Virus record (IMG/VR): IMGVR_UViG_3300028045_000007
Span: 90,409 to 154,408 of that record
Strand: one strand, 5' to 3'
Origin: a virus
DNA length: 64,000 nucleotides
A program made the position numbers and the translations under genes. The notes beneath the pieces are model-generated. The model made no database searches, was not told where the DNA came from, and saw only the letters and a list, made by a program, of their open reading frames with translations. Below, in pieces: positions 20,536 through 63,171 of the stretch (positions are counted from its first letter, which is position 1; the number at the start of each line of letters is the position of its first letter).

Positions 20536-21587
20536 AAGCACTGTCTTTCGACGACATCTCGCTCGTGCCGAGGTACAACAACATTACGTCACGTCGTGAC
20601 GTAGACACTAGCGTTCAGTTTGGTGATCTAAAACTGCGTATCCCTGTGTTTTCATCTAATATGGACACGGTCACCGATGCTCGCATGGCACGTAGGCTTC
20701 ATTCGTTAGGCGGACTTGGTTTTCTACATAGATTTTGCTCTATCGAAGACAATGCTGCGATGTATTATCAGGCTCGTATAGCTGAGCCGGGCAATTCTCA
20801 TAGTCCAGATGCCGTTGTGTCGTTAGGTGTCAACGAGGGGCTCGATCGTTTTCATGCTCTCTACGAGGTAGGTGCCCGCTATTTCTGTGTAGACATTGCT
20901 CATGGACACAGCCAGCCAGTGGGTAGACTAGTCGAACAGATCAAACAGTTCGACAGTAGTGTATTCGTAGTCGCTGGAAACGTGTGTGAGAACGCTGGAG
21001 CCAGCTACTTGGCCGACAAGGGTGCTGACGCAATCAAGGTAGGCATCGGCCCAGGAAGCGTTTGTACCACTAGACGTAAGTCTGGGTTTGGTATCCCACA
21101 ATTCACAGCCATTCGAGAGTGTCACCGTGTAAACTGTTTCGTGATCGCCGATGGCGGCATTCGTACGCCCGGTGACGTGGTGAAAGCCCTGTATGCCGGT
21201 GCCGATGCAGTCATGATTGGAGGTATGTTTGCCGGGTGTGACGAGACTCCGGGCGATTTCATCGAAGACACCATCTGGGAGTCAGCGTCACCCGCAGGGT
21301 TTCTGCACCGCAAGGTTAAGGTGTACCGTGGCATGGCCTCCAAGGAAGCCCAAGACGAATTCATGGGATCCATGCACGACTGGAAGACCTCCGAGGGTGT
21401 CGAAATCAAGGTTCTGGCCAAAGGACCCGTTAGTGACGTAGTCACTGACCTAATGGGTGGTGTTCGTAGTGGTATGACCTACTGTGGGGCCAATGAACTA
21501 AGTCAGATTCGCCAGAGAACATACCACGTTGAGGTTTCGGCGGCAGGAGCCGCCGAAGGTACGGCACACGGGAGGAATCAATCATGA
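20532..21587 (+). CDS. guaC: GMP reductase-like protein (GuaC/IMPDH superfamily)
   Basis: A 351-residue TIM-barrel enzyme. It contains [21 protein letters not shown] split as the catalytic-cysteine loop (cysteine near 178), [20 protein letters not shown], the phosphate-binding [18 protein letters not shown] and [15 protein letters not shown]. The loop sequence and the absence of CBS domains fit GMP reductase (about 347 residues) better than IMP dehydrogenase (about 490). Expected reaction: NADPH-dependent GMP to IMP plus ammonia. A GMP reductase inside a phage glycan cluster is unusual; it could rebalance purines for DNA synthesis or guanine sugar nucleotides. Confidence 0.8.
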
Positions 21588-22683: not shown

Positions 22684-23326
22684 TGTTTTACTCTGCGTAC
22701 ATAGCCAAGATCATGAACATGATATGCTTTTGCAGCGTGCCCTTGAGTCATTAGTGGCACAAACGTATACAGATTTCGAGACGGTCATCGTGATGGACGA
22801 GTGCTGGGACGGCACCCGCCACATCGTTGATAGCTATGGTGAGGTGTTAGACTTACGGGTCCATGAACGCCCCCGCAAGGAGGGCTTGGCAGCAGCTAAG
22901 AACTTTGGCCTTAACCATTGCGACCACGAATGGATTGCCTATCTAGACGCCGACGATCAGTGGCTTGATTGCAAGCTCGAAGTGCAGCGGAAGTGGCTAT
23001 TGGAGCGACCAGAGGTGGACTTTTGCGGGACAAACGCCTGGGACCTACTTGATGGTGCGATGGTACCCAATTGCTTTGAAGTCACGCAATACAGCACGCA
23101 TAACGATATTGTTGAGAGACTACCTTACGAGAATATCCTTTGTCATGGCAGCATGATGATTCGTCGTTCCGCTCTTCATGCTTTGGGTGGCTATAGTCGT
23201 GACAAAGTGTTGCTTGGTCGTGAAGATTGGAATCTATGGCAACGAGCCGTGGCTGCCGGATATAACTTCGGCAAAATCGCGGAGAGGCTTTACATTTACT
23301 CATTAGGAACTAGCGTACCCCGTTGA
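22661..23326 (+). CDS. GT2-type glycosyltransferase
   Basis: A 221-residue GT-A enzyme with the full GT2 pattern: SVLLCVHSQDHEHDMLLQRA start, LVAQTYTDFETVIVMDEC, GLAAAKNFGLNHC, and the DXD motif in AYLDADDQWL near residue 105, then LGREDWNLWQRA near the end. It is short (typical minimum about 220), so it comprises only the catalytic domain. Confidence 0.82.
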   Translation: MKETDSISVLLCVHSQDHEHDMLLQRALESLVAQTYTDFETVIVMDECWDGTRHIVDSYGEVLDLRVHERPRKEGLAAAKNFGLNHCDHEWIAYLDADDQWLDCKLEVQRKWLLERPEVDFCGTNAWDLLDGAMVPNCFEVTQYSTHNDIVERLPYENILCHGSMMIRRSALHALGGYSRDKVLLGREDWNLWQRAVAAGYNFGKIAERLYIYSLGTSVPR

Positions 23327-23328
23327 CA

Positions 23329-23982
23329 ATGAATACTAAAGGACATAATCCATTTAAAGATACGCCCGACAATCATGATTTCATGACCGAGGAGCACGTC
23401 TCTGTTTTTCTTCGGAACCACAAGACAGGAGTTGATAATCTGGGACGACACATGCTGGTAGACATAGTTGCACGGTATGATAATCCCAGGGTGTTGGACA
23501 TGGCATGTGGCACGTGTGTCAACTGGGATGTATTCAAACAACGCGGACTCAAGTGTCAATATGTTGGTTTAGATCGTACGACCAGTATGATTCTCGAAGC
23601 AGATAAACGCTATGGCACTGAGATCACCCTTCATGAAGGATATGTACAGCGTACAGGGCTACCTGATGACTTCGCCGACATAGCTATTATGCGACACATA
23701 CTTGAGCATTTACAGGAGGGGTATGAGGATGCGATTAGAGAGGGGTTGCGTGTTGCCTCCAAGGAACTCGTTGTTGTTTTCTTCTTGACTCCTTCAAATA
23801 AGGATGAGGATGAAGTTAGTGAGTCCGAGCCAGATGAGAATGGCTGCACTTACTTCTGGAATACGTATAGTTGGTCCAAGTTTGCCGAGTTCGTTGCCAC
23901 TTTGGGCGTACAGATGAAAGTTGGGCACGTTGTAACCCCTGGTGCCGCTCATGCTGACACGATTGTTCGACTAATCAAATGA
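23329..23982 (+). CDS. Class I SAM-dependent methyltransferase
   Basis: A 217-residue protein. The ATG at 23329 is preferred; a TTG six bases earlier is also in frame. Motif I reads VLDMACGTCVNWDVF, followed by VGLDRTTSMI (acidic residue that binds the ribose) and an IAIMRHILEHLQEGYED segment typical of Methyltransf_11-like proteins. It probably methylates a sugar or lipid in the glycan pathway. Acceptor unknown. Confidence 0.72.
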   Translation: MNTKGHNPFKDTPDNHDFMTEEHVSVFLRNHKTGVDNLGRHMLVDIVARYDNPRVLDMACGTCVNWDVFKQRGLKCQYVGLDRTTSMILEADKRYGTEITLHEGYVQRTGLPDDFADIAIMRHILEHLQEGYEDAIREGLRVASKELVVVFFLTPSNKDEDEVSESEPDENGCTYFWNTYSWSKFAEFVATLGVQMKVGHVVTPGAAHADTIVRLIK

Positions 23983-27416: not shown

Positions 27417-27888
27417 TACACATACAGAGCTTCTAAAGTTTTTGATGGACAACCTTGCCATCGAAACAGTTTTGGAGTTAGGCATGGGACACTTCAGCAC
27501 CCCGTTGTTTCGGAGCTATCCAGGCGTTAGTTTAGTTAGCCTGGACTCTGACATCAATTGGGTCAATCAATTCAGTCCCGGTCCTAATCACACCGTTGGT
27601 GCCTACCCACTACTGGGGTTTGCTCGCAACGTGACTTGGTTTGATTTAGCTTTTGTTGATGGTAATCCAGCCAGCGAACGTGCCGCCTGTGTACAAGAGC
27701 TTTTGCTCAAAACTAGACTGGTTGTAGCACATGACACGGGTCCAGAAGACAATTGGAATTATCACTATGACGAGATCGTATTACCAGAAGGCTTTGTGCG
27801 TTTAGACTATACGAAAAAGTCACCGTGGACATCTGTTTTCACTGCTGACGCAGAAGTTATTGCTAAGGTACAAGAGTTCAATGGGTAG
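27403..27888 (+). CDS. Methyltransferase-like protein
   Basis: A 161-residue protein starting at 27403. TVLELGMGHFSTPLF is a class I methyltransferase motif I, VSLDSDINWV the acidic strand and WFDLAFVDGNPASERAA the next conserved region, followed by RLVVAHDT. It resembles small class I fold proteins found near FkbM genes. It overlaps Fcl by 14 bases and the FkbM-like gene by 8. Confidence 0.6.
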   Translation: MDQYSTHTELLKFLMDNLAIETVLELGMGHFSTPLFRSYPGVSLVSLDSDINWVNQFSPGPNHTVGAYPLLGFARNVTWFDLAFVDGNPASERAACVQELLLKTRLVVAHDTGPEDNWNYHYDEIVLPEGFVRLDYTKKSPWTSVFTADAEVIAKVQEFNG

Positions 27889-28519
27889 AAAAATCTTCCT
27901 AGATGTCGGGTGTAATACTGGTCAGTCTCTTGAGGCTGCACTAGACCATGACTTTGATGTCGTCTATTGTTTTGAGCCGGTGATGGAGTATTGTCAGTCG
28001 TTACAGTCTGGCGTCTTGTCTTCTGATGTCGGTTCTGGCATTGCAGAAAGACCTTACGACCAAACCAGGGTGGTCATTTGTCCCTTTGGACTTTGGGTCA
28101 ATACCGAGCGTATTTCTGTACATAGTCCTCACACAATGGCAGCGTCAGTGTTTGACGACCACCAGGACAGCGAGGGCGGCACCACAGAGTGTCAGTTTGT
28201 CAAGGCTTCCGAGTGGTTACGACATCACATCACCGACGACGATTTTGTTGTCATGAAAATGAATTGTGAGGGTAGCGAGTGTACCATTCTGGACCATCTA
28301 ATGGACAGTGATACTATACACTTGATCGATCACATTATGGTTGATTTTGATGCAATGAAGATTCCGTCCCAACGCCATAGACCGCAGCGTACTATTTGGA
28401 ACCTGAACAATCATGGTGTTGATTACGTGTTCGCCGAGGACGTTATGTGCGGGGCTACCCACCACGATCGTATTTGCTATTGGCTAAAAGAAAAGGTTGA
28501 GGAGATCAATGAACGATAA
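27881..28519 (+). CDS. FkbM-like SAM methyltransferase
   Basis: A 212-residue protein. IFLDVGCNTGQSLEAAL is motif I, VVYCFEPVMEY the acidic strand and VVMKMNCEGSECTIL the FkbM family K-x-D/N-x-E-G-x-E region, then HIMVDF. FkbM enzymes typically O-methylate sugars. It lies between Fcl and Gmd, which supports modification of a fucosylated or related glycan. Confidence 0.72.
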   Translation: MGRKIFLDVGCNTGQSLEAALDHDFDVVYCFEPVMEYCQSLQSGVLSSDVGSGIAERPYDQTRVVICPFGLWVNTERISVHSPHTMAASVFDDHQDSEGGTTECQFVKASEWLRHHITDDDFVVMKMNCEGSECTILDHLMDSDTIHLIDHIMVDFDAMKIPSQRHRPQRTIWNLNNHGVDYVFAEDVMCGATHHDRICYWLKEKVEEINER

Positions 28520-32692: not shown

Positions 32693-33924
32693 TGGCTCAA
32701 CATAACAACTATTGGTTCGGCACACGCCCGACGCGACAATCTGTTTCGTCGGGCCTTATTCGCACTGTAGATACACTCATCATCGGTGGTGGCATTGCTG
32801 GGATAACCTTATTGGGTCGCCTTATCGGTAGCGGCGTTACTAATACGTATCTCGTTGAAGATAGCACTGTCGGTTACCATGCTTCTGGTCGCAGTGCTGG
32901 TCAACTCATGTTACGTGGCGGCGAACTGTTCTCGCAAATGCCCCAGAAAGATGGCATCGAGTATTTACAGTTTATGATTGATAACAATCAGCGATTCATA
33001 AACGGACTCCGTAACACAAAGTCCGATACGGATTTACGTGAGTCTGGTGGGTTGAGACTTGCTACCACGCACGAAGAATTTGAGTTGCTCAAACAAGAGT
33101 CCGAGTTTATTTTACAACACGGTAACATAGACTGTCCCATCCTGACGACCAGCGAACTCAAGACGTTTTTTCCCCACAATTGTGGCTTCACTGGTGGAAT
33201 ATATGTGCCTACCGAGGCGACGTGTAACCCGTATAAGGTTGTGAACGAATTGCGGGAACTTATTGAGGACAAAGGAGCTAGGGTGCTTACGGGTTGTTGT
33301 GTAGATGATGTTATACGCAACCCCGACGATAGTTTCAGTGTGTCAATTCGTCACAAGGGCACCATCAAAGCGAAGCGAATAGTGTATTGTATGGGAGCAT
33401 ATACCTCAGAACTGTTGCCCGAACTGGCGGAGTATACAGAAAGCTTTAGAGGTCAAATGATTGCTACCGACACCTTGGAAGATAGCGTGCTACAGTCATT
33501 GCCTCAGATGAGCGTTACGTATAACCACGGCAATGAATATTGGCGTCTGTATGCTGGCCGACTATTGGCTGGTGGCATGCGTCATTCTATTCGCGGTGCT
33601 CAAGTGGGCATTAGCGATGACGGCGAGTTCAGTCCTGCGGTGTATGATAGGCTACGTCAGTTCATTAAGGACACGTTGCCGGTCACTAAAAGAGTCAAAT
33701 TTACGCACGTATGGTCTGGTGTAATGAGTAAAACACTGGACCAATTGCCGTTAATTGGTTCGCTTCCTGGTCGTCCCAACGAATTTGTATTTACCTGCTT
33801 CAATGGCTATGGCTATAGCCACGTTATGCATGGTAGTATGATTTTAAAGGACATCGTAATCAATGGCGAGTCAATGCGTCCTGGTGCCCGGCTATTCGAT
33901 CCCGCGAGGTTTAATCATGCTTGA
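32692..33924 (+). CDS. FAD-dependent amine oxidase-like protein (DAO family)
   Basis: A 410-residue flavoprotein of the D-amino acid oxidase superfamily. TLIIGGGIAGITLLGRLIG is the dinucleotide-binding GxGxxG, YHASGRSAGQ the family S/G-R-N/S-A-G segment, and KFTHVWSGVMSKTLDQLPLIG plus NGYGYSHVMHG the C-terminal FAD-contact motifs. Known members oxidise secondary or primary amines such as glycine, sarcosine or gamma-glutamylputrescine, and some modify tRNA. Such a gene is rare in phages. Position between dut and RNR does not reveal the substrate. Confidence 0.72.
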   Translation: MAQHNNYWFGTRPTRQSVSSGLIRTVDTLIIGGGIAGITLLGRLIGSGVTNTYLVEDSTVGYHASGRSAGQLMLRGGELFSQMPQKDGIEYLQFMIDNNQRFINGLRNTKSDTDLRESGGLRLATTHEEFELLKQESEFILQHGNIDCPILTTSELKTFFPHNCGFTGGIYVPTEATCNPYKVVNELRELIEDKGARVLTGCCVDDVIRNPDDSFSVSIRHKGTIKAKRIVYCMGAYTSELLPELAEYTESFRGQMIATDTLEDSVLQSLPQMSVTYNHGNEYWRLYAGRLLAGGMRHSIRGAQVGISDDGEFSPAVYDRLRQFIKDTLPVTKRVKFTHVWSGVMSKTLDQLPLIGSLPGRPNEFVFTCFNGYGYSHVMHGSMILKDIVINGESMRPGARLFDPARFNHA

Positions 33925-35862: not shown

Positions 35863-36168
35863 ATGACACAACCCAAGCCCAAAGAGAAGTTTGTTTTTAC
35901 CCACCCCAAAGACGAAGACGGTAACGATATCCTGTTCCGCTTTATGTTGACGCTAGATCGCAAGATCAGTAGTCTCGGCAAGACGTTGCCCGATTCGATT
36001 GGTACCATCGACGGCATTGATGCCGTAGTGCCCCAAGTAGGCATGTATACAATGGAGATTGCTATCGCTCGCACTTTCGATCCGGCAGAGGTCATTGAGG
36101 AAATCAAGAGACGTTTGAAGGATGTTTTGAGCGACATCATTCGTCCCAATAAAGAACTCATCGTTTAG
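35863..36168 (+). CDS. Hypothetical protein behind a strong promoter
   Basis: A 101-residue mixed alpha/beta protein with a hydrophobic core segment (GMYTMEIAIARTF) and a helical basic/acidic C-terminus (VIEEIKRRLKDVL). It lies directly after a strong predicted promoter and three bases before ThyX. No family is recognised. Confidence 0.55.
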   Translation: MTQPKPKEKFVFTHPKDEDGNDILFRFMLTLDRKISSLGKTLPDSIGTIDGIDAVVPQVGMYTMEIAIARTFDPAEVIEEIKRRLKDVLSDIIRPNKELIV

Positions 36169-36171
36169 ACT

Positions 36172-36870
36172 ATGGACAAAGGACATACTATTCCCATTCT
36201 AGGGGGAGGGTACGTACGCTATGTCGATCATCTTGGGTCGGATCAGCGTATTACTGAGACAGCTCGTATATCGTATCTGTCTCCCTCGAAGGGTGAATTG
36301 CAGGATAAGGAGCTACTTTTCTACCTATTCAAGAAGAGGCACACAAGTCCATTTGAGTCGTCCAACATCACATTCAATATTCGCATGCCTATCTTTTGTA
36401 TGCGGCAGTTCGTGAGACATCGTACGTTCAGATTGAATGAGCAGTCGGGACGGTATTCTGAGCTGCCCAGTGATTTCTACGTGCCCGACGTGTGGCGAGG
36501 ACCAGACGATATCAATAGACAAAGCAGCGTTCCCGTGCGGCGTGACCTCCCTGGACACGAAGAGTGGCACGAAGAGAACGACAGACTGGCACGGGGGCTG
36601 TTTGCCGAAGCGTACGCCGTCTATCAAGAGTTTTTGAATCGTGGCGTCGCTAAAGAGCTTGCTCGCATTGTATTGCCGGTTGGTATCTTTACTGAGATCT
36701 ATGTAAGTTGTGACGTACATAACCTTATCCATTTCTTGAATCTTAGACAAGATTCCCATGCTCAATGGGAGATGCGAGAGATTGCTAATGCGATGAGTGA
36801 AGCGTTTCAAAAATTCTTTCCCTGGTGTGCAGAAGCACGCAGTAAATACAAATGGAGACTAGTAGAATGA
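36172..36870 (+). CDS. thyX: Flavin-dependent thymidylate synthase
   Basis: A 232-residue ThyX. The RHRTFRLNEQS segment (about residues 83-93) is the diagnostic RHRx7S motif, followed by GRYSEL. HTSPFESSNITFNI at about 57-70 and LIHFLNLR near 185 are further conserved regions. The reaction is FAD-dependent methylation of dUMP to dTMP with methylenetetrahydrofolate and NADPH. Together with dUTPase and the class II RNR it gives the phage an independent dTTP supply. Its stop overlaps the next ATG by 4 bases. Confidence 0.93.
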   Translation: MDKGHTIPILGGGYVRYVDHLGSDQRITETARISYLSPSKGELQDKELLFYLFKKRHTSPFESSNITFNIRMPIFCMRQFVRHRTFRLNEQSGRYSELPSDFYVPDVWRGPDDINRQSSVPVRRDLPGHEEWHEENDRLARGLFAEAYAVYQEFLNRGVAKELARIVLPVGIFTEIYVSCDVHNLIHFLNLRQDSHAQWEMREIANAMSEAFQKFFPWCAEARSKYKWRLVE

Positions 36871-37388
36871 AGAAAATCGTATTGGTGCTTGGTGTTATCG
36901 GCGGACTTGCCGCAGGAGGCTGGGCCTTGTATAGTGCAGCCCCCATGCAGCCACAGCCACAAGGCGTGGAGACCGATTGTGAATCGACCAATCCTTACAA
37001 GCCTGAAAACGCTCCTGGATGTCCACAGGGACCTATCTATTGTCCCGTTCCGCAGGAGATCGATTGGGATTGTGTCAAGAAGGCTCAGAAGAAATACGAA
37101 GACGACATGGCCACCCTGTACGGACTAGCGTATGGCTGGTATGACCACGCTTGCGAATCTTTTGAGAGCGAGGTCGAAGGTATTGATAAAGCGTATGCCG
37201 CTTGCGTTGACAGTGGAACTCCAGAGGAGGTCTGTGCTCGCCGCCAAAATTTCAGTTACAAAATTGCCCTAGACGTGTATGCGTCTAGACTTGAAGGTCA
37301 ACAGAAAAGCGTGTCTGAGTGGACGGACAAAATTGCTATGCAGTACTGGGAAGATGTTTCGAAATGCTGCGTTGAGGGAGATCAGTAA
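36867..37388 (+). CDS. Exported cysteine-containing protein
   Basis: A 173-residue protein with an N-terminal membrane-export segment (KKIVLVLGVIGGLAAGGWAL), then a proline- and cysteine-containing mature part (CESTNPYKPENAPGC, IYCPVP, IDWDC). Helical, charged regions follow. It likely resides outside the cytoplasm or is membrane-anchored. Its position behind ThyX and before a second secreted protein suggests a virion or lysis-related role, but no family is recognised. Confidence 0.55.
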   Translation: MKKIVLVLGVIGGLAAGGWALYSAAPMQPQPQGVETDCESTNPYKPENAPGCPQGPIYCPVPQEIDWDCVKKAQKKYEDDMATLYGLAYGWYDHACESFESEVEGIDKAYAACVDSGTPEEVCARRQNFSYKIALDVYASRLEGQQKSVSEWTDKIAMQYWEDVSKCCVEGDQ

Positions 37389-42171: not shown

Positions 42172-42420
42172 GTTTGCACGACATTTGGCTGGGCGACGTA
42201 ATGCCCGAGAGCGGAGTGGCCGTAGCTATTGGTCGTAATAGCTATGACCCACCGGCTCCCGTAGTGCCAGTACATGATGTCCATGCCCGTTCGCTCGTGA
42301 TGTATGATTCTGGTTCGCCAGAACACTCCGGGATCATATCCTTTTACAGTGATCTAATAGACAAGTGGTGGCCCACTAATTTACGAGTTATTCCTGGCGG
42401 TAGTGGAATGCAGCCAATTG
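41491..42420 (+). repeat. Tandem duplicated fibre-gene 5' module
   Basis: The first roughly 230 bases of the two consecutive fibre genes (41491-41720 and 42168-42420) encode nearly the same protein segment, while codons differ at many synonymous positions. This indicates an old in-place duplication maintained by protein-level selection rather than a recent copy. Confidence 0.7.
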
Positions 42421-50817: not shown

Positions 50818-51001
50818 CCACGGTGCGATCTTCTCGTTCTTTGCACGACTGACAAAGAGATACCTTGCGTACGATGATGGCTAATTCGTCTGGCAATTCC
50901 TTTTCGTTGCCAGGATGCAACGACATACGTTCGGTGCCTCCGTAGTAGCTACCGTGGCATTTACGACACTCGATTAACTTCAGTGTCTTAGGCGTTTTCA
51001 T
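50789..51001 (-). CDS. Small zinc-finger-like protein
   Basis: A 70-residue protein with IECRKCHGSYY and SLCQSCKER, a typical two-knuckle zinc finger, and a basic tail (KRKKFER). It overlaps both neighbours (14 bases with the sigma gene and 29 bases with the HD-like gene). Possibly nucleic-acid binding. No family recognised. Confidence 0.55.
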   Translation of the reverse strand: MKTPKTLKLIECRKCHGSYYGGTERMSLHPGNEKELPDELAIIVRKVSLCQSCKEREDRTVGGKRKKFER

Positions 51002-51512
51002 GACTAAGCCTTATCTCTAGTAACGAAACGAGTTTATTGATACGTGCCGCAATATTTGCGTACGATACCCCGTCCTCTGACGCAATACGTCTTAGGGATT
51101 TTCCATTAATGAAATATTCCGTCAGTAAACGAACGTCTTTATGGTCGGAGGCTTTACGCAAGATTGTATCCAACACGTCTTGACCTTCTAGTTCTCTCCC
51201 GTCTTCACTACTGACACAAAAATCGGAGACATCTTCATTTATCATTGGCAATACATTATGTGTACGCTTCTTGATATATCGTAGCACGTGACCACGGATA
51301 TAGAAGTATGCCCACGTCGTGAATCGAGACTTGGTAGGGTCGTAAGTTTCACACGCAGATAGTAGACCAACCCATGCTTCCTGATGAAGATCGTCCATAT
51401 CAATAAGAACGTCTCTCTGACACAGAGCATAGAATGGTTTTAAGATGCTGTAAATGAAAGCGTCCCATTCGTTTTGTGGTAAAATATCGAGCGGACTATC
51501 TTGCATATCCAT
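50988..51512 (-). CDS. Sigma-70-like factor
   Basis: A 174-residue protein. DMDDLHQEAWVGLLSACETY and SRFTTWAYFYIRGHVLRYIK correspond to region 2 (core-binding and -10 recognition). The C-terminal RRIASEDGVSYANIAARINK helix-turn-helix corresponds to region 4. It is smaller than the plus-strand sigma. Two phage sigmas could divide early/middle and late promoters. It overlaps the flanking genes on both sides. Confidence 0.75.
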   Translation of the reverse strand: MDMQDSPLDILPQNEWDAFIYSILKPFYALCQRDVLIDMDDLHQEAWVGLLSACETYDPTKSRFTTWAYFYIRGHVLRYIKKRTHNVLPMINEDVSDFCVSSEDGRELEGQDVLDTILRKASDHKDVRLLTEYFINGKSLRRIASEDGVSYANIAARINKLVSLLEIRLSHENA

Positions 51513-56888: not shown

Positions 56889-57244
56889 GTTATTTGTTTT
56901 TCGAGATCTTCGATCCAATTGAAAGCTTCTATTTCAGATGCAGGATAGAACGAAAGCATACGATCCGCTTTACTATATCTTTCTTCTACGTCGAGCCCCT
57001 TGCTCTTTAGTCGTTCGATCTGTTCTGGAAACAGAGGGATTTCTGAAAATTGTTTGAGTATTGCGTACACTGGTTCGTTACGCCAGTACGGATAGTGCTT
57101 GTCCCAACAGTCCATCGCAACTTGTGATGGTATAATGAATGGCTGATAGAACCGTCCATACATAATGGCTACCACCGTGCCAAGCGTGGCTGGACTAGTA
57201 ATGCCTTCAGTTCTAATCTTAGTGCCTAGTTGCAGCATCATCAT
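56882..57244 (-). CDS. Conserved-looking phage protein of unknown function
   Basis: A 120-residue helical protein rich in aromatic residues (MYGRFYQPFIIPSQVAMDCW and YPYWRNEPVYAIL). It overlaps the RNA ligase and NDT genes by 4 and 7 bases. No signal peptide. Function unknown. Confidence 0.5.
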   Translation of the reverse strand: MMMLQLGTKIRTEGITSPATLGTVVAIMYGRFYQPFIIPSQVAMDCWDKHYPYWRNEPVYAILKQFSEIPLFPEQIERLKSKGLDVEERYSKADRMLSFYPASEIEAFNWIEDLEKQITW

Positions 57245-58446
57245 TGTGCAGTCTCCAGCCTCACTTTTTCAAGGACGAGTTTCCAAATTTTATCTTCGAT
57301 ATCTTTATCATCGAGAAGAGCAAACACAAAGCCCATCTCTGCGTTTTGCACATTGGTGATTATCCACTGTGCATACAGCTTACGTGATTGATTGATTCCA
57401 ACTGTTGACAGAAGACTGTTGTGATTATCGTAGGCACGTCCCAAGAGGTCGTTATACAACCCCTGTACATACGCACGCATGTCGTCAAAGTCACGGGCAA
57501 TACTTGTAGGTAATTGCTTAACTGTAACTCCATACTCGGAACCACGAATAAGATTAATGACTCCCTTTGGACTGAGATTGTCGAGCAATCTATGGATGCG
57601 TAGGTACGTTGGGCTCTTCACTTTGACTCGAAGTCCATTGTCAAAGCGTGCCACATACCCTTCTGAATTCTCGTCAAAAGGGATGCTTCCTTGCAGATCA
57701 ATGTCGAACCGACGTGGACGGTGGAAGCCGCAACGCTCAGCTATCTGATCTACACGACGCGGGTGCCACTCGGTGCCGTTATGCTCGAATATTGCTAACA
57801 ACGAGAGAAAACTCTCGCCGTTATAATCTACTACAATTCTGTTTCCAGGATAGATGATCTCGAATACAGGAGTACAATTTGTCGGCAAAGCCTCCAGATT
57901 ATAGCGACACCTTGGTGCGGGCCATTCTGGAAACAGAGATTTTCCCGTTTCATCACCAACCATAATAGTTTCGTTGAGGATACGAGTACCCTCGACAGCT
58001 TGGTCAGATTCCGTGCTGCCTGGAGTAGCGAGACGCCACGTTGGAATCTTTATAGGATAGACGTGCCTGTTTTTGTAAAACTCTGGATCTTCTTCAAACG
58101 TTGGCAATGGGGCTCTCGTGTCAGGACCATCGGTCCCGAAGTATCCGATGCCGCACGAGCCGTCCATCTTTTCCCATATCTCTACCCCCTCCTTCCAGGG
58201 GAGATTCTTTGGCTCGGTCTCTGGACGTTCGTTCATATTGAAGAACTTAGAGAATGGGCGAGCTACGACCGTACCGTCCGTTCGAAAGATGATGCCGCGA
58301 GCTTGGCGGTTCGTCTCGTTCCATCTATCGTGGATGTGACAGTCTTGCGTGTACTTGAATAGGGTCAAGTCGCCGCTAATATTTGCTACAACGTTACCAG
58401 CTTCGACTTCCTTCCAGAGTTTATTTAGTAGGATTGGGTCTTTCAT
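57241..58446 (-). CDS. rnlA: T4 Rnl1-like RNA ligase
   Basis: A 401-residue ATP-dependent RNA ligase. The nucleotidyl motif EKMDGS carries the lysine (residue 93) that is adenylated. RARGIIFRTDGTVV and ARPFSKFFNMNE precede it as in T4 RnlA (374 residues). FEIIYPGNRIVVDY (III), EGYVARF (IV) and RVKVKSP (V) follow in order. It seals 5'-phosphate and 3'-OH ends of broken tRNAs. In this window it is accompanied by a polynucleotide kinase and a CCA enzyme. Confidence 0.9.
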   Translation of the reverse strand: MKDPILLNKLWKEVEAGNVVANISGDLTLFKYTQDCHIHDRWNETNRQARGIIFRTDGTVVARPFSKFFNMNERPETEPKNLPWKEGVEIWEKMDGSCGIGYFGTDGPDTRAPLPTFEEDPEFYKNRHVYPIKIPTWRLATPGSTESDQAVEGTRILNETIMVGDETGKSLFPEWPAPRCRYNLEALPTNCTPVFEIIYPGNRIVVDYNGESFLSLLAIFEHNGTEWHPRRVDQIAERCGFHRPRRFDIDLQGSIPFDENSEGYVARFDNGLRVKVKSPTYLRIHRLLDNLSPKGVINLIRGSEYGVTVKQLPTSIARDFDDMRAYVQGLYNDLLGRAYDNHNSLLSTVGINQSRKLYAQWIITNVQNAEMGFVFALLDDKDIEDKIWKLVLEKVRLETAQ

Positions 58447-58459
58447 AATGGCTCCGCCA

Positions 58460-58708
58460 TTAGGGCCATAGGCAAATCACTTTCGCAAACCCGTCTCTTT
58501 CTCCGGGGTCAAGACAGCAGTCGTCGTCACTGTGTGCATCAGAATAATAGCTATCGATTCGATCCGTTTCCAGGTTGTCGGGATGCACACTGCCCTCGTC
58601 GATGGAGTACAATGAGCTATACCCGTTGCCCTCTGGGTCCTTGCTCAGAATGACTTCGGCATCTTGGTTGTATTCCTTGAGGATTTCGATTAATTCGCTG
58701 ACCTTCAT
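58460..58708 (-). CDS. Small acidic protein
   Basis: An 82-residue acidic protein starting KVSELIEILKEYNQDAEVIL, a pattern seen in small phage proteins, ending with several Asp, Cys and a KVICLWP tail. It overlaps the next gene by 4 bases. No clear function. Confidence 0.5.
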   Translation of the reverse strand: MKVSELIEILKEYNQDAEVILSKDPEGNGYSSLYSIDEGSVHPDNLETDRIDSYYSDAHSDDDCCLDPGERDGFAKVICLWP

Positions 58709-59001
58709 GACTTCTTAGGTGCTTTCTTCCTGGTTGTTTTTGCCTTAGGCTTGTCCTGCTCCTCGGTGGGATCGGGGTCAAGCCACTCGATTGAGCCGTT
58801 CCCTTCGTGGCCATGAATAGCCACAAATGTTTTCATGTTGTCGTATACACTGACGGTGCCCATATTGGACAACCATGTAAATACAACTTTACCGTTGGAC
58901 ATTTCGCAGCCCTCACCCACGATGCCCGTGCCACTGACGCCTGAAACGTCTTCGACACGAACAAAGTGGAAGCGTCTAATTGAAGGTGTTTGACTATTCA
59001 T
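58705..59001 (-). CDS. Hypothetical protein
   Basis: A 98-residue beta-rich protein with a lysine-rich C-terminus (KAKTTRKKAPKKS) that could bind nucleic acid. It overlaps the cca gene by 8 bases. Its function is unknown. Confidence 0.5.
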   Translation of the reverse strand: MNSQTPSIRRFHFVRVEDVSGVSGTGIVGEGCEMSNGKVVFTWLSNMGTVSVYDNMKTFVAIHGHEGNGSIEWLDPDPTEEQDKPKAKTTRKKAPKKS

Positions 59002-60244
59002 GATCCTTGAGGGCTTTAGCCCTTTCGTTTTCCATACGTTGGGCGATCTTGCGACCGTCTTTGAGGTGGGCGAAGAGCGTTCCCCTTACCGTCCGCACGA
59101 CAGCGGCAGCTTGCACCAACGCTTCGCGGTTCGGGTACGGTTCAACAATAGACTCGGGACCGCGACCCTGGGCATCAGCCTGACAGGCCAAACCCACACG
59201 CCGCAGCAGCACGTCATTGTGAACAACGCCAAGACGCATCAATAGACGAACTCTCTTGACGGGCTTCATGATGTCGAAACGATGCACGTTTAGGTGTTCT
59301 CGCGTCACGGCAACCGCGACCGCTCGAAAACCATTCGGGACACGTAAACGATCACACATTTCCTTTACTAGCGGCACCCCAAGACGCTCATGGTCGTAGT
59401 GGTGCGGAAGGTTATCGTCCGGCGTGACTGCTTTACCAAAATCGTGCGTTAGCACGGCAAACATCGTCTCGTCGTCGGCACCCAAGGCTCTGGCTCTTTC
59501 GAGTACCAGGAGCGTATGCTTGTACGCATCCCCTTCGGGATGATACTGTTCCGGTTGCACGCGACCCCGAAGGTCCACAAGTTCCGGAAACACAGCTTCC
59601 AGTGCCATCATTTTATCAAGAGCTTCAAAGAACAGTCTGGGGTGATGCGATTGCAAAGCCTTTAGGAGTTCTCCCCACACTCTGTCGGGCGTGAGGTCGA
59701 AAAGCTCATCATGCACGTCTATTGCGGCAAGCACAAGCTCATCCGAAACTACCATGTTCAACTGAGCAGCGAATCGTGCGGCTCGCAGCACACGAAGGGG
59801 GTCTTCGGCAAAGTGCGGGCCGACCGGACGTAGTACACCCTTTTGCAGATCGTCGGTTCCGCCGAACGGATCGAACAGCTTGCCCGTGAACGGGTCCATA
59901 GCCATTGCGTTGATCCGCAAGTCTCGTCGCCTAAGATCTTCTTCGAGCGTTACGTTAACAGTATCGCACTCGAAGCCATCGTGACCAGCACCCACCTTTT
60001 TGTCGGTCCTGGCGAGTGCCCACTCTACACCGTCCTTGATGTAGACAGGGAAACCCTTACCCACGGGGTCAGCGGCCTCTAGTGCGGCCTCTAGCCCCTC
60101 GGGATCAAGTCCAACGACCACGATATCTACGTCTTTGGGGTTACGGCCCATGATCTTATCACGGACCCACCCACCTACAACGTAGGGCTGGCCGCCAGCG
60201 TCAACAATGCGTTGACATAGCTTGAGGTGTCGATTGCGTAGCAT
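58994..60244 (-). CDS. cca: Bacterial-type tRNA nucleotidyltransferase with HD domain
   Basis: A 416-residue protein similar in organisation to E. coli Cca (412). Class II NTase motifs are VVGGWVRD (GG at 24-25) and DVDIVV (Asp 38, 40). RRDLRINAMA and EDPLRVLRAARFA are typical. The C-terminal HD domain keeps HTLLVLE, AVLTHDFGK and the later HERLGVP and REHLNVHRF motifs, so its 2',3'-cyclic phosphodiesterase/phosphatase activity may be retained. ATG at 60244 is preferred to GTG at 60259 because it is 6 bases from a strong -10 element. It repairs or builds tRNA 3' CCA ends. Confidence 0.88.
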   Translation of the reverse strand: MLRNRHLKLCQRIVDAGGQPYVVGGWVRDKIMGRNPKDVDIVVVGLDPEGLEAALEAADPVGKGFPVYIKDGVEWALARTDKKVGAGHDGFECDTVNVTLEEDLRRRDLRINAMAMDPFTGKLFDPFGGTDDLQKGVLRPVGPHFAEDPLRVLRAARFAAQLNMVVSDELVLAAIDVHDELFDLTPDRVWGELLKALQSHHPRLFFEALDKMMALEAVFPELVDLRGRVQPEQYHPEGDAYKHTLLVLERARALGADDETMFAVLTHDFGKAVTPDDNLPHHYDHERLGVPLVKEMCDRLRVPNGFRAVAVAVTREHLNVHRFDIMKPVKRVRLLMRLGVVHNDVLLRRVGLACQADAQGRGPESIVEPYPNREALVQAAAVVRTVRGTLFAHLKDGRKIAQRMENERAKALKDHE

Positions 60245-60250
60245 ACGGAC

Positions 60251-60278
60251 AGTATACACCCTTGCGGGTGATTGTCAA
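60251..60278 (-). promoter_or_regulatory. Predicted leaderless promoter of cca with inverted repeat in the spacer
   Basis: On the minus strand: TTGACA (60278-60273), 16-base spacer, TATACT (60256-60251), 6 bases, then ATG at 60244. The spacer contains the perfect inverted repeat CACCC GCAA GGGTG. The geometry predicts transcription starting at the ATG itself, giving a leaderless message. No ribosome-binding site is visible upstream of the ATG. Confidence 0.72.
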
Positions 60279-60589
60279 GTCTTTTCAGAGAAACAGTTGC
60301 AGTTTTGTACGCAAGCAACTGTAATTGGAGGAGACGGGGCGACATTCTTGACTCCCCAGAAACACACCGCCCTGACACGTTCGTGCTCGATTGTGTGTTC
60401 AACAATATCCATTGTTTCTTCGTCGTCCTCAACAGATTCACAGATATCGAATGGTGAAACGGAATCGTCTGGGGGTCCACCAGTCATACCAGCATGAAAG
60501 ACACGCTCTTGCTCGGTCTCTTTCACGCACATGCCATACTTGCACTTCCAGCATAAGCTGGACTTGGCATCAATTTTACGATCACTCAT
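60275..60589 (-). CDS. Hypothetical cysteine-rich protein
   Basis: A 104-residue protein starting at 60589 within the end of the kinase gene (8-base overlap). It has SLCWKCKYGMCVKE near the N-terminus and VACVQNCNC near the C-terminus, candidate metal ligands. An acidic central stretch (ESVEDDEETMD) separates them. Its stop codon lies within the cca promoter -35 element. Function unknown. Confidence 0.55.
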   Translation of the reverse strand: MSDRKIDAKSSLCWKCKYGMCVKETEQERVFHAGMTGGPPDDSVSPFDICESVEDDEETMDIVEHTIEHERVRAVCFWGVKNVAPSPPITVACVQNCNCFSEKT

Positions 60590-61091
60590 TAAAAATATCC
60601 ATATTGGACCACTCTTGTTCATCGTCGAGCGGCTGGTACTTAGAGATTTGTTTTTCTAGCGTAGCGAGAGGAACGCCATGAATGTTACGAGCGAACAAAG
60701 TCTCGGCATCCCATGGACCCGGCGTACGCCAGACTTCCAACTCGCATCCATACTGTTCAGCGAGTTGGAGGTAGGGGTTGAGTTCCCACTTGCTCATACT
60801 GGTATTAGATACGATTGCATCACAACCAATAAGAATGGTACGCTCGACATTCAATTGGCACCAGCGATGAGCTTGACTCAATTTTGTTGGATCAAAGTTG
60901 TATTCGTCTCCGAATTCACTTGTGAAGAATTGGTCTGCCTCATGGAAAACGACACGCGGACCATAGGTGGCACCCATGATTCTTGTGTGTCCCTTGCCGT
61001 ATTTTGCTTCGTCCTCTTTTCGTTCGATAGAACGAGCGATCGTAGTCTTGCCGCTACCGCTAGGGCCTCGAATGATGATTACTTTACTCAT
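60582..61091 (-). CDS. Polynucleotide kinase-like P-loop kinase (kinase domain only)
   Basis: A 169-residue protein. GPSGSGKT (9-16) is Walker A, HEADQFF then KLSQAHRWCQLNVERTIL and VSNTSMSKWELNPYLQLAEQ follow the pattern of AAA_33/N4BP2-like kinases used for 5'-OH RNA or DNA phosphorylation. The T4 enzyme has an extra C-terminal phosphatase, which is absent here. It probably prepares 5' ends for the RNA ligase. No Shine-Dalgarno precedes the ATG, which follows a strong hairpin. Confidence 0.72.
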   Translation of the reverse strand: MSKVIIIRGPSGSGKTTIARSIERKEDEAKYGKGHTRIMGATYGPRVVFHEADQFFTSEFGDEYNFDPTKLSQAHRWCQLNVERTILIGCDAIVSNTSMSKWELNPYLQLAEQYGCELEVWRTPGPWDAETLFARNIHGVPLATLEKQISKYQPLDDEQEWSNMDIFNE

Positions 61092-61101
61092 GATATAAAT
61101 T

Positions 61102-61132
61102 AAGCGGGGACCAAACTTTTCGGTCCCCGCTT
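61102..61132 (-). terminator. Strong hairpin between ssb and the kinase gene
   Basis: A perfect 11-base stem (AAGCGGGGACC paired with GGTCCCCGCTT) with a 9-base loop, followed on the minus strand by AATTTATATC. It starts 5 bases after the ssb stop and ends just 10 bases before the kinase ATG. It may attenuate transcription or stabilise the ssb mRNA, since no separate promoter for the kinase is seen. Confidence 0.75.
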
Positions 61133-61136
61133 AGGG

Positions 61137-61535
61137 TTAGAAAAGCTTACTGCCTTCTGTTTCTGCGTCTTCGGGTTCACTATTGACGGCGACTTCGGCG
61201 GGTCCGTTACTCACCTTGTTGCCAGTGAAGAAGAAGCCTCCGTAGTTTTCCAGACGGATTTCAAGCTTGGATCGCTTGTTGCCTTCTGCATCTTCCCACT
61301 TGTTCATGACGATCTGACCACGAACATTCACCTGTTGTCCCTTGATGAGATGAGATTCGATGACGGCTACTTGCTTACCAAAAGCAACGCAGTCGATGAA
61401 TGCGGTTTCGGGACGGTTCTTGGTGCCGATGTTTGATGCGATTGTAAAGCGGGCCACCCTGTTTTCTTCATTCCCCATAATCTTTGGGGTATCCGTAAGG
61501 TTGCCTTGGACGATTGCTACGTTGAGATTACTCAT
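61137..61535 (-). CDS. ssb: Single-stranded DNA-binding protein
   Basis: A 132-residue SSB: VQGNLTDTPKIM start, FTIASNIGTKNRPET, FIDCVAFGKQVAVIESHLIKG and VNVRGQI are canonical OB-fold segments. The C-terminus is acidic and ends in phenylalanine (ETEGSKLF), as needed for protein partner binding, though not identical to the DDIPF tip. It binds single-stranded DNA during replication. It overlaps the previous gene by 8 bases. Confidence 0.9.
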   Translation of the reverse strand: MSNLNVAIVQGNLTDTPKIMGNEENRVARFTIASNIGTKNRPETAFIDCVAFGKQVAVIESHLIKGQQVNVRGQIVMNKWEDAEGNKRSKLEIRLENYGGFFFTGNKVSNGPAEVAVNSEPEDAETEGSKLF

Positions 61536-61920
61536 TTGTGTCTTCAGTGCTGGGGGTAGATTGTTTGGCCTCGATGACCTCGATTAGTGCCTGTGCCCGT
61601 GTGATGTCTCCTGACTTCATACGGTTATGTTGTGATTGTGATACTCGGAACCTACGACGCACTCCGATAGCTCCCTCAACACGATCAGAGAAGTTCTCCA
61701 ACGTAAGACCCGGCTCCAGATAAACAGAATCGGGAATGTCGGGACGAGTACGGTCTTGAAGGTTTTTCAAGCCTCCATTTTGGATGAACTCTTGGAATGC
61801 TTCTTCTCTAGTCAGTACACCACCGTCAATGCGTTGCTTCTGATCCTTAGAGATACGGAAACGGAACCCGGTTTGGGCAGTGAAGTTTTCGAGCGTTAGA
61901 TTATCTGTGGTTGCAGTCAT
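61528..61920 (-). CDS. Hypothetical protein with internal tandem repeat
   Basis: A 130-residue protein made of two similar halves: LTLENFTAQTGFRFRIS and then TREEAFQEFI are repeated as LTLENFSDRV...RRRFRVS and TRAQALIEVI, about 65 residues apart. The repeat suggests internal duplication of a small nucleic-acid- or protein-binding unit. It precedes ssb and is translationally coupled to it. No known family. GAGG occurs upstream. Confidence 0.6.
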   Translation of the reverse strand: MTATTDNLTLENFTAQTGFRFRISKDQKQRIDGGVLTREEAFQEFIQNGGLKNLQDRTRPDIPDSVYLEPGLTLENFSDRVEGAIGVRRRFRVSQSQHNRMKSGDITRAQALIEVIEAKQSTPSTEDTNE

Positions 61921-61959
61921 TATAGTTTAACCTCGTGGTTGGGGTCGTGTTACGGTATT

Positions 61960-61988
61960 ATTATGACACTACTGGTCTAGAGTGTAAC
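61960..61988 (-). promoter_or_regulatory. Predicted promoter for the ssb-kinase operon with inverted repeat in the spacer
   Basis: On the minus strand: GTTACA (4 of 6), 17-base spacer, CATAAT (5 of 6). An inverted repeat ACACT N10 AGTGT spans the -35 and spacer. The start site would be about 33 bases before the gene at 61920, which has a GAGG element. The 127-base gap has no gene and is the only obvious site for this operon's promoter. Confidence 0.42.
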
Positions 61989-62047
61989 GTAGTTTCTGGA
62001 GTTTCTTCATTCCAAAAACCAGAGGAGTAGGGTTTCTGAACTTTAAC

Positions 62048-62929
62048 CTACTCATGAGATTCGGTGTTTTGATGAGGCCGCTCATTGGCAAGTCTCTCTC
62101 GGATTTCGCTTAGGGTGTATTCTTTGATCAGTGTACCATCGAGGAAAACGGTTTCGAATTCGCAGTTACGAACTTCGATCCAGGCCGTTTGATCAACCTT
62201 GTAGAGTTCGCCATCAGTATCTCGGTGGACGGCGACAAGCCCCTTGGACATGATTGCGTGCGTTACGACCAAGAAGACTCGTTTGGCACCTCGCCCCCTG
62301 AGCTTCGCTGCCAAAGCGAGGAAGGTGCCGCCGCCGTCGCAGAGATCGTCTACGATGATGTAGTCTTCGCAGTCGGCGGGGAGTTCGGGGACGACCATTT
62401 CCATTACGTGATGGTGTTCTGCCATCTCGTCTCTCTTCTTGTCGCACTGAACAAGAGGACGCAAGAAGTGTTGAGCGTATTTCCCAACCCAGAGTGATGC
62501 TCCCTTGTCGGGAGAGACGATGGCGTACTTTATTAGACCGAAGTCTTCGATACACTTGCCGATGAGGGTGTCCGTCATGTCGTCTTCGGCACTTGTGCGT
62601 AGTAATTCTAGCGTTACGGGCGAGTGCGGCTTGAGAACTGTCACGGTCTTAAAGTTTAGCGTATTGATGAAGCTACAAACGATTTCGAGATCGAATGCTT
62701 CGCCCACGCTAAACTCACGATCACAGCGGGCGGCAAGTAGATACACAATACTCAGATGCTTGAGATTGGGTAAAATGTGAGTAGCTTGTGCCAGCAGGAA
62801 TAGGTCGTCGAAATTGCGAATCGACGCTCTGATCGATGTCGTGTAAAAGTGCTCAAAGTCCGGGGGCACGATAAGGTGTTTGTGTCCGTCCGGAAAGTTG
62901 GCTACGGGGATATCGTGTAAATTTATCAT
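62048..62929 (-). CDS. prs: Ribose-phosphate pyrophosphokinase-like protein
   Basis: A 293-residue protein. IIVDDLCDGGGTFLALA (about residue 195) is the PRPP-binding loop. LLAARCDREFSVGEAF and VSPDKGASLWVGKYA are other Prs motifs. Length and motif order match phosphoribosyl pyrophosphate synthetases (about 310). It makes PRPP from ribose 5-phosphate and ATP, or acts on a related substrate such as ADP-ribose. Relation to NAD metabolism is discussed in the findings. Confidence 0.8.
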   Translation of the reverse strand: MINLHDIPVANFPDGHKHLIVPPDFEHFYTTSIRASIRNFDDLFLLAQATHILPNLKHLSIVYLLAARCDREFSVGEAFDLEIVCSFINTLNFKTVTVLKPHSPVTLELLRTSAEDDMTDTLIGKCIEDFGLIKYAIVSPDKGASLWVGKYAQHFLRPLVQCDKKRDEMAEHHHVMEMVVPELPADCEDYIIVDDLCDGGGTFLALAAKLRGRGAKRVFLVVTHAIMSKGLVAVHRDTDGELYKVDQTAWIEVRNCEFETVFLDGTLIKEYTLSEIRERLANERPHQNTESHE

Positions 62930-62981
62930 AACTCGGAACCGCCATTAGTCTTCTTCGTTTTCCATGTTATTTATAGTGTGT

Positions 62982-63068
62982 TGGTACGGAAGAGGGGACT
63001 TGAACCCCTACACCCTTTCGGATACGAGATTCTAAATCTCGTGCGTCTACCAATTACGCCACTTCCGC
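62982..63068 (-). tRNA. tRNA-Leu (anticodon UAG) with encoded CCA
   Basis: The minus strand folds into a full cloverleaf: acceptor GCGGAAG/CTTCCGT, D-arm, anticodon arm CGAGA TTTAGAA TCTCG (anticodon UAG), a long class II variable arm (TATCCGAAAGGGTG) and T-arm AGGGG TTCAAGT CCCCT. The body is 62985-63068; the CCA is encoded at 62982-62984. The long variable arm and anticodon both indicate leucine. It reads CUA. Confidence 0.93.
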
Positions 63069-63094
63069 ATGTGATGCCGCTATGCGACATGTTC

Positions 63095-63171
63095 TGGTGA
63101 CTGGAGTCGGACTCGAACCGACAACTTCTTGCTTTTGAAACAAGTGACTCTGCCAATTGGCCTACCCAGTC
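63095..63171 (-). tRNA. tRNA with anticodon CAA and short variable arm, encoded CCA
   Basis: On the minus strand: acceptor GACTGGG/TCCAGTC (one G-U), a D-arm with a 3-base stem, anticodon arm CTTGT TTCAAAA GCAAG (anticodon CAA), 5-base variable loop and T-arm GTCGG TTCGAGT CCGAC. Body 63098-63171, CCA at 63095-63097. CAA reads UUG (Leu), but Leu tRNAs in bacteria normally have a long variable arm, so the charging identity is uncertain. It lies 26 bases from the first tRNA. Confidence 0.85.

What the first reader, a model, noticed from the sequence alone, without database searches (positions are those of the whole stretch)
57241..63171. Possible tRNA-repair cassette: RNA ligase, kinase, CCA enzyme and tRNAs
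A T4 Rnl1-like ligase, a kinase-only PNK-like protein, a bacterial Cca with an intact HD domain and two tRNAs occur within 6 kb. In T4, Pnkp and Rnl1 repair tRNA cut by host anticodon nucleases. Here the PNK lacks a phosphatase domain, and the Cca HD domain (known in E. coli Cca to have phosphodiesterase/phosphatase activity) could supply the missing 3'-end healing. Both tRNAs already encode CCA, so a Cca enzyme is not needed for their synthesis, which fits repair instead.
Basis: partly seen in the sequence, partly recalled or inferred. Interest (0 to 1): 0.82.

Follow-up and report, generated by a model that had tools for sequence, protein, structure and literature searches.

The report
Phage tRNA-repair gene cassette
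A large bacterial virus carries, side by side, genes for an RNA 5'-end kinase, an RNA ligase and a tRNA-tail enzyme that together probably mend tRNAs cut by the host's immune nucleases; the parts are known kinds, and the missing 3'-end-cleaning step is more likely done by a phosphoesterase elsewhere in the same genome than by the tail enzyme.

Summary
At 57241-63171 (minus strand) lie a T4 Rnl1-type RNA ligase, a CCA enzyme with intact HD domain, a kinase-only Pnk-like protein and two tRNA genes that encode CCA. Gene order is conserved in ten related contigs; one has lost cca by a recent deletion. An unrelated Rhizobium phage has Cca-Thg1-Rnl1-Pnk-tRNAs, and Cca lies near ligase or kinase in 6 of 20 other lineages (1.2 expected). 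Across eight genomes 127 of 129 tRNA genes encode CCA, so tail repair is likelier than tail synthesis.

Outside the window the same contig encodes two calcineurin-like phosphoesterases, an RlaP repair polymerase, a Macro protein and a free HD protein. One phosphoesterase family sits beside the same ligase/kinase pair in Aeromonas, Vibrio and Pseudomonas phages, and inside the cassette in relative G003.

Verdict: a real tRNA-repair module, a variant of known phage RNA-repair systems; Cca-HD as 3' healer is possible but second choice.

The parts
57241..58446 (-). RNA ligase (LIG), T4 Rnl1 type, 401 aa; K93-x-D-G-S nucleotidyl-transfer motif and R50-G51, E196, E262-G-x-V265, K275-x-K277
   Evidence: Pfam RNA_lig_T4_1 62.3 bits vs cut-off 28.3; phrog_562 1.3e-53; profile best PDB hits T4 Rnl1 2c5u/9do4/5tt6 ~3e-33 over almost full length; motifs conserved; Foldseek top hits T4 Rnl1
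58460..58708 (-). small ORF (82 aa), unknown, between LIG and o98; not conserved in position
   Evidence: phmmer relative only in G003
58705..59001 (-). small conserved ORF o98 (98 aa), unknown (phrog_7499)
58994..60259 (-). CCA-adding/repair enzyme (Cca) with NTase head, RNA-binding body and intact HD domain; likely true start ATG about 5 codons downstream of the listed GTG
   Evidence: Pfam PolyA_pol, PolyA_pol_RNAbd, HD all above cut-off; phrog_2244 2.9e-112; PRK10885 373 bits, below its 451 cut-off; 10/10 HD positions identical to E. coli Cca
60275..60586 (-). o115: short Cys-rich ORF between kinase and cca in the relatives; four invariant Cys, unknown function, possibly zinc-binding
   Evidence: no family hit; AlphaFold pLDDT 57, uninformative
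60582..61091 (-). kinase-only P-loop protein (KIN), AAA_33/N4BP2-like, 169 aa, no phosphatase domain
   Evidence: Pfam AAA_33; matches only residues 1-143 of the 295-position phrog_505 polynucleotide kinase, phrog_2071 5e-21; profile best PDB hits T4 Pnk kinase 1ly1 2.3e-12 and the Clostridium Pnkp kinase domain; P-loop G9..K15 and D53 invariant
61137..61535 (-). single-strand DNA-binding protein (SSB), conserved upstream neighbour, probably not part of repair
   Evidence: Pfam SSB; synteny
62982..63068 (-). tRNA-Leu(UAG), CCA encoded
   Evidence: ARAGORN
63095..63171 (-). tRNA with CAA anticodon (called Leu), 77 nt, short variable arm, CCA encoded
   Evidence: ARAGORN

Best explanation
This is a phage-encoded tRNA/RNA repair module that works like the T4 Pnkp/Rnl1 pathway but is split over separate genes. 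Proposed steps: (1) a host anticodon nuclease or other RNase cuts tRNA, leaving 2',3'-cyclic phosphate and 5'-OH; (2) a calcineurin-like phosphoesterase encoded elsewhere in the same genome (MPE2, contig 32844-33434, outside the window) removes the 3' block; (3) KIN phosphorylates the 5'-OH; (4) where nucleotides were lost, RlaP (contig 36057-37067) may refill; (5) LIG seals; (6) Cca restores damaged CCA tails of host and phage tRNAs, its HD domain cleaning 2',3'-cyclic ends at or near the tail and perhaps sharing step 2. Shown: gene content, intact motifs, conserved order, recurrent ligase-kinase-phosphoesterase neighbourhoods in other phages, CCA encoded in nearly all tRNA genes. Inferred: substrates, all catalytic activities, the trigger nuclease, and the share of MPE2 versus Cca-HD in 3' healing.
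For: Motif-complete LIG, KIN and Cca. Order o130-SSB-KIN-o115-CCA-o98-LIG conserved in ten related contigs, cca missing in one. Same set in Rhizobium phage RHph_I1_18 (Cca-DUF1127-Thg1-RNA ligase-Pnk-tRNAs). Cca within 2.5 kb of ligase or kinase in 6 of 20 other lineages, 1.16 expected, P about 7e-4. MPE2 is phrog_547, the PHROG of the gene contiguous with LIG-KIN in Aeromonas phage phiA009; a phosphoesterase follows LIG-KIN in Vibrio phage Gary and lies near LIG-KIN in Pseudomonas Pyxpy02; 5 of 5 phages seen in both lists have KIN and MPE 88-1857 bases apart. In relative G003 MPE2 lies between LIG and CCA; in G002 and G004 it overlaps RlaP. Phosso has the kinase fused to such an MPE. 127/129 tRNA genes in own contig plus seven relatives encode CCA. 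Iyer et al. 2021 (PMC7824862) describe RNA ligases, Pnks, phosphoesterases, RlaP, CCA enzymes and Thg1 as phage RNA-repair kits.
Against: No activity tested. In the window's own genome MPE2 is about 114 kb from the cassette along the contig, and Pfam did not recognise it on its own (PHROGs did). KIN is 19-56% identical to its aligned relatives and its substrate could be something other than RNA. The cassette sits in an operon of DNA-metabolism genes (SSB, dNMP kinase, deoxyribosyltransferase, PRPP synthase). Cca is dispensable in G006.
Confidence: 0.57

Rival explanations
1. One reading: the HD domain of Cca is the dedicated 3'-end healing enzyme of the pathway (2',3'-cyclic phosphodiesterase plus phosphatase), replacing the phosphatase half of T4 Pnkp, and Cca-KIN-LIG form a complete three-enzyme repair system.
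For: HD motif is all-or-none: 10/10 positions kept in the window clade and the HD domain is the best conserved domain of Cca there (mean 67% vs 59% for the NTase head). Among phages with Rnl1, kinase and Cca, HD is lost in all 10 records whose kinase is fused to a phosphatase (HAD_PNKP, or MPE in Phosso) and kept in 21 of 22 others. E. [quoted passage not shown] M. tuberculosis Cca HD is an active phosphohydrolase (same paper).
Against: The tree allows only 1-3 independent comparisons, all in the predicted direction but not significant. G023 has full Pnkp and intact HD. Many phages keep Cca-HD without Rnl1 or AAA_33 kinase (F102, helene, Barba31A, V1084), so HD retention has another cause. Better placed 3' healers exist in the same genome. 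Cca is deleted in G006 with kinase and ligase intact.
Confidence: 0.17
2. Cca acts alone in CCA-tail maintenance of host and phage tRNAs (as bacterial Cca does), for example when host defence removes tails; its place beside kinase and ligase reflects a common need for intact tRNA, not a shared pathway.
For: CCA encoded in 127/129 tRNA genes, including 11/11 in the Cca-less G006, so tails need repair rather than synthesis; Cca is more than 2.5 kb from ligase and kinase in 14 of 20 other lineages; tRNA tail cleavage is an immune strategy (Cas12a3, PMC12851939).
Against: Does not explain the tight and recurrent linkage with ligase or kinase or the HD/Pnkp anticorrelation.
Confidence: 0.18
3. No tRNA pathway: LIG has a structural role (tail-fibre attachment, the second function known for T4 gp63), KIN phosphorylates a small molecule, and the genes are neighbours only because they belong to an early nucleotide-metabolism operon.
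For: phrog_562 is named RNA ligase and tail fibre attachment catalyst; neighbours are SSB, dNMP kinase, deoxyribosyltransferase and PRPP synthase.
Against: LIG keeps every ligase motif; nearest solved relatives of KIN are 5'-polynucleotide kinases and a tRNA(Sec) kinase; ligase-kinase pairs recur in unrelated phages.
Confidence: 0.06

Closest known systems
T4 Pnkp/Rnl1 tRNA repair (counter to E. coli PrrC)
   Same: 5' kinase of the T4 Pnk type and an Rnl1-type ligase; phage-encoded; tRNA genes nearby
   Different: Kinase lacks the C-terminal HAD phosphatase; 3' healing must come from another protein (MPE2 or Cca-HD); a Cca gene is inside the cassette
Bacterial Pnkp (Clostridium thermocellum Pnkp) and Pnkp1-Rnl-Hen1
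   Same: Same three activities: kinase, calcineurin-like phosphoesterase, ligase; KIN profile matches the Clostridium Pnkp kinase domain
   Different: Here kinase, phosphoesterase and ligase are three proteins; the ligase is Rnl1 type; no Hen1 methylase was looked for
Jumbo-phage RNA-repair kits (Iyer et al. 2021, PMC7824862)
   Same: Ligase, Pnk, phosphoesterases, RlaP, CCA enzyme and Thg1 listed there as parts of phage RNA repair
   Different: Here a conserved cassette in phages whose contigs are up to 183 kb, with kinase-only protein and HD-intact Cca as close neighbours
Rhizobium phage RHph_I1_18 locus (MN988519, 164-170 kb)
   Same: Cca, RNA ligase, kinase and tRNAs in about 6 kb
   Different: Carries Thg1 in addition; order differs; kinase only 19% identical to KIN
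E. coli Cca (multifunctional CCA protein)
   Same: Same domain order; all ten HD positions identical; about 40% identity
   Different: Below NCBIfam PRK10885 cut-off; phage lineage of its own

Membership tests
Rnl1-type RNA ligase (Pfam PF09511) | Score above Pfam gathering cut-off | tested here: met
   62.3 vs 28.3 bits
Rnl1-type RNA ligase (Pfam PF09511) | Motif I KxDG and motifs III-V, plus C-terminal domain collinear with T4 Rnl1 | tested here: met
   Motifs conserved; profile aligns T4 Rnl1 31-355 of 375; Foldseek top hits T4 Rnl1, TM about 0.45 with a pLDDT-73 model
T4 RnlA equivalog (TIGR02308) | Score above equivalog cut-off | tested here: not met
   46.3 vs 242.25 bits: an Rnl1 relative, not a T4 RnlA equivalog
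T4-type Pnkp | 5'-kinase P-loop domain | tested here: met
   AAA_33; 1ly1 2.3e-12
T4-type Pnkp | C-terminal HAD phosphatase domain (PF25109) | tested here: not met
   KIN matches 1-143 of phrog_505 only; no PF25109 match anywhere in the contig
Bacterial-type CCA enzyme | NTase head, RNA-binding body and HD domain above Pfam cut-offs | tested here: met
Bacterial-type CCA enzyme | HD metal-binding residues | tested here: met
   10/10 positions as in E. coli Cca, whose sequence was recalled from memory for numbering; consistent with the alignment of annotated phage Ccas
E. coli-type multifunctional Cca (NCBIfam PRK10885) | Score above equivalog cut-off | tested here: not met
   373.3 vs 451 bits
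T4-type tRNA repair system | 3'-phosphatase/cyclic phosphodiesterase in the same protein as the kinase | tested here: not met
   candidate separate enzyme MPE2
T4-type tRNA repair system | Repairs tRNA cut by a host anticodon nuclease | not testable with these tools
   host unknown; needs biochemistry
phrog_547 phosphoesterase as partner of LIG-KIN | Adjacent to ligase and kinase in other phages | tested here: met

The most novel reading that the evidence does not exclude
The cassette is a two-site tRNA-repair system: kinase, ligase and a phosphoesterase mend anticodon-loop cuts while Cca, with its HD domain, rebuilds tRNA tails removed by immune nucleases such as Cas12a3, for which the authors state that viral resistance means are unknown (PMC12851939); in lineages without a Pnkp phosphatase the Cca-HD also supplies 3' healing, so one enzyme serves both sites.
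Probability: 0.15. Interest if true: 0.72.

Novelty: new variant of a known kind. Interest (0 to 1): 0.48.

Why it matters
Cleavage of tRNAs is a widespread antiviral strategy, and tail-cleaving Cas12a3 was reported in 2026 with no known viral answer. A conserved phage cassette that couples anticodon-loop repair enzymes to a CCA-repair enzyme, in phages whose tRNA genes already encode CCA, gives a concrete candidate for such an answer. The observed mutual exclusion between a phosphatase on the kinase and an HD domain on Cca makes the question of who heals 3' ends directly testable.

Tried and rejected
(1) Search for a T4-type Pnkp phosphatase, PNK3P, HAD Swiss-army-knife or 2H phosphoesterase in the contig: none found. 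(2) The idea that Cca is needed to make phage tRNAs: rejected, 127/129 encode CCA. (4) Structure prediction of o115: pLDDT 57, useless. (5) search for related loci with the kinase: no hits. (7) CAKLQF020000002.1 dropped as a mis-filed bacterial sequence. (8) Paper library: Burroughs and Aravind 2016 is not held; known here only through Iyer 2021. (9) Some kinase loci on the minus strand were not re-oriented by the tool, so their architecture rests on the reported frame lengths of 134-214 aa rather than on reading the sequence.
Full report
What the window is. The window is the last 64 kb (90409-154408) of a 154,408-base IMG/VR virus record. It encodes a large phage DNA polymerase, a DnaB-type helicase, ribonucleotide reductase, an SbcC-like protein, PhoH, peptide deformylase and a sigma-factor-like protein, so it is a large phage; its host is not known.

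Check of the observation. All parts are at the stated coordinates on the minus strand: ligase 57241-58446, Cca 58994-60259, kinase 60582-61091, tRNAs 62982-63068 and 63095-63171. The ligase scores 62.3 bits against Pfam RNA_lig_T4_1 (cut-off 28.3), keeps the KxDGS lysine motif and the other ligase motifs, and its family profile finds T4 RNA ligase 1 in the PDB at 3e-33 over nearly its whole length, C-terminal domain included; a moderate AlphaFold model also matches T4 Rnl1 first. The kinase matches only the first 143 of 295 positions of the phage polynucleotide-kinase PHROG; its nearest solved relatives are the T4 Pnk and Clostridium Pnkp kinase domains and the tRNA(Sec) kinase. Both tRNAs encode CCA. 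Two strict equivalog cut-offs (T4 RnlA, E. coli Cca) are not met, so these are relatives rather than equivalogs.

More than chance. tblastn and phmmer on related viral contigs show the order o130-SSB-kinase-o115-Cca-o98-ligase-deoxyribosyltransferase-dNMP kinase largely kept in ten related contigs at 46-71% ligase identity. Neighbouring genes overlap by a few bases, as in an operon. An unrelated Rhizobium phage has Cca, Thg1, RNA ligase, polynucleotide kinase and two tRNAs in 6 kb. In 20 lineages other than the window clade that carry all three genes, Cca lies within 2.5 kb of ligase or kinase in six, against 1.16 expected (P about 7e-4; random placement is a simple null).

Why Cca is there. 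All three tRNA genes of the contig and 127 of 129 tRNA genes in it and seven relatives encode CCA, including 11 of 11 in the relative without Cca. Cca is therefore not needed to make the phage's tRNAs; repair of tails, or of other 3' ends, is the likelier use. That relative, G006, carries an internal deletion of cca between flanks 94-99.7% identical to G002, leaving a remnant of 29 codons, while kinase, o115 and ligase are intact. Cca is thus dispensable, or was lost very recently; an assembly error cannot be excluded.

Who heals the 3' end. The rest of the contig changes this. It lacks the Pnkp HAD phosphatase, HAD Swiss-army-knife and 2H families, but encodes two calcineurin-like phosphoesterases: MPE1 at 6272-6976 beside a Macro protein, and MPE2 at 32844-33434; also an RlaP RNA-repair nucleotidyltransferase at 36057-37067 and a stand-alone HD protein at 27989-28471 (contig coordinates). 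MPE2 belongs to phrog_547. The same PHROG is contiguous with ligase and kinase in Aeromonas phage phiA009; a phosphoesterase directly follows ligase-kinase in Vibrio phage Gary and lies close by in Pseudomonas Pyxpy02. All five phages seen in both the kinase and the phosphoesterase lists have the two genes 88-1857 bases apart. In relative G003 MPE2 lies inside the cassette between ligase and Cca, and in G002 and G004 it overlaps RlaP. Phosso fuses such a phosphoesterase to the kinase, as bacterial Pnkp does. PVP-SE1 instead has a cREC domain between ligase and kinase, a domain proposed to process cyclic phosphates (PMC7824862). I therefore rank MPE2 as the main 3' healer.

Among phages with Rnl1, an AAA_33 kinase and Cca, the HD domain is wholly lost in all ten records whose kinase carries its own phosphatase, apart from G023, and kept in the 21 records with a kinase-only protein: ten HD-lost records are all bifunctional, and 21 of 22 HD-intact records are kinase-only. 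But HD loss needs only about six changes on the Cca tree, of which starred branches force three, and only one to three independent pairs remain, all in the predicted direction and none significant. G023 has both a full Pnkp and an intact HD domain. Several phages keep the HD domain with neither Rnl1 nor kinase. The HD domain is the best conserved domain of Cca in the window clade (67% versus 59% for the head), so it is under selection, for a role not yet known. The activities of the E. coli and M. tuberculosis HD domains are documented (PMC10673834).

Mechanism, shown and inferred. Shown: gene content, motifs, synteny, recurrence. Inferred: that 2',3'-cyclic phosphates are opened by MPE2 (and perhaps Cca-HD), that KIN phosphorylates the 5'-OH, that LIG seals, that RlaP refills lost nucleotides (as when RloC excises the wobble base; PMC2610378), and that Cca rebuilds tails. 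T4 uses Pnk and Rnl1 in this way against PrrC (PMC2610378). Cas12a3 cleaves tRNA tails and its authors call viral means of resistance unknown (PMC12851939); a phage Cca is a natural candidate, which is my suggestion and untested.

Comparison and novelty. Iyer et al. 2021 already list RNA ligases, Pnks, phosphoesterases (calcineurin-like and HD-like included), RlaP, CCA enzymes and Thg1 as phage RNA-repair kits, and RaK2 was noted to carry Cca, Pnk and ligase. What I did not find described is the conserved close-packed cassette with kinase-only protein and HD-intact Cca, the small Cys-rich protein o115 within it, the recurrent split ligase-kinase-phosphoesterase set, and the HD/Pnkp exclusion pattern. 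I rate it a new variant of a known kind, of moderate interest.

Noticed in passing
window 63095-63171: The tRNA called Leu(CAA) is only 77 nt with a short variable arm, unlike ordinary bacterial tRNA-Leu; several relatives also have 76-79-nt tRNAs with Leu anticodons. Its charging identity is unsure.
   Followed up: no
G001 20945-21020, G003 152892-152967, G004 42285-42361, G008 126818-126894 (relatives): tRNAs with CUA anticodon (ARAGORN calls them Pyl), i.e. possible amber suppressors; the window contig has none. Possible TAG reassignment in relatives.
   Followed up: no
window 60275-60586: o115, a short ORF with four invariant cysteines, sits between kinase and Cca in the relatives; no family match; possibly a zinc-binding partner.
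   Followed up: partly
L019 about 9037-9130 (G006): cca carries an in-frame internal deletion leaving a 29-codon remnant, with flanks up to 99.7% identical to G002.
   Followed up: yes
contig G000:C1 6272-7431: Macro-domain gene directly upstream of a metallophosphoesterase (MPE1): a possible ADP-ribose or cyclic-phosphate processing pair.
   Followed up: partly
G001 27473-28243 and G003 22897-23652: Thg1-like genes in relatives, as next to the ligase in Rhizobium phage RHph_I1_18.
   Followed up: no
L089 (KVP40 226539-227180): KVP40 encodes an unannotated Cca homologue without HD domain.
   Followed up: partly
L104 (CAKLQF020000002.1): Record filed as Acinetobacter phage MD-2021a shows ordinary bacterial genes (maeB, degS, sodB): probably host sequence mis-filed as phage.
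   Followed up: no
window 50988-51512: Short sigma-factor-like protein in the minus-strand operon arm.
   Followed up: no
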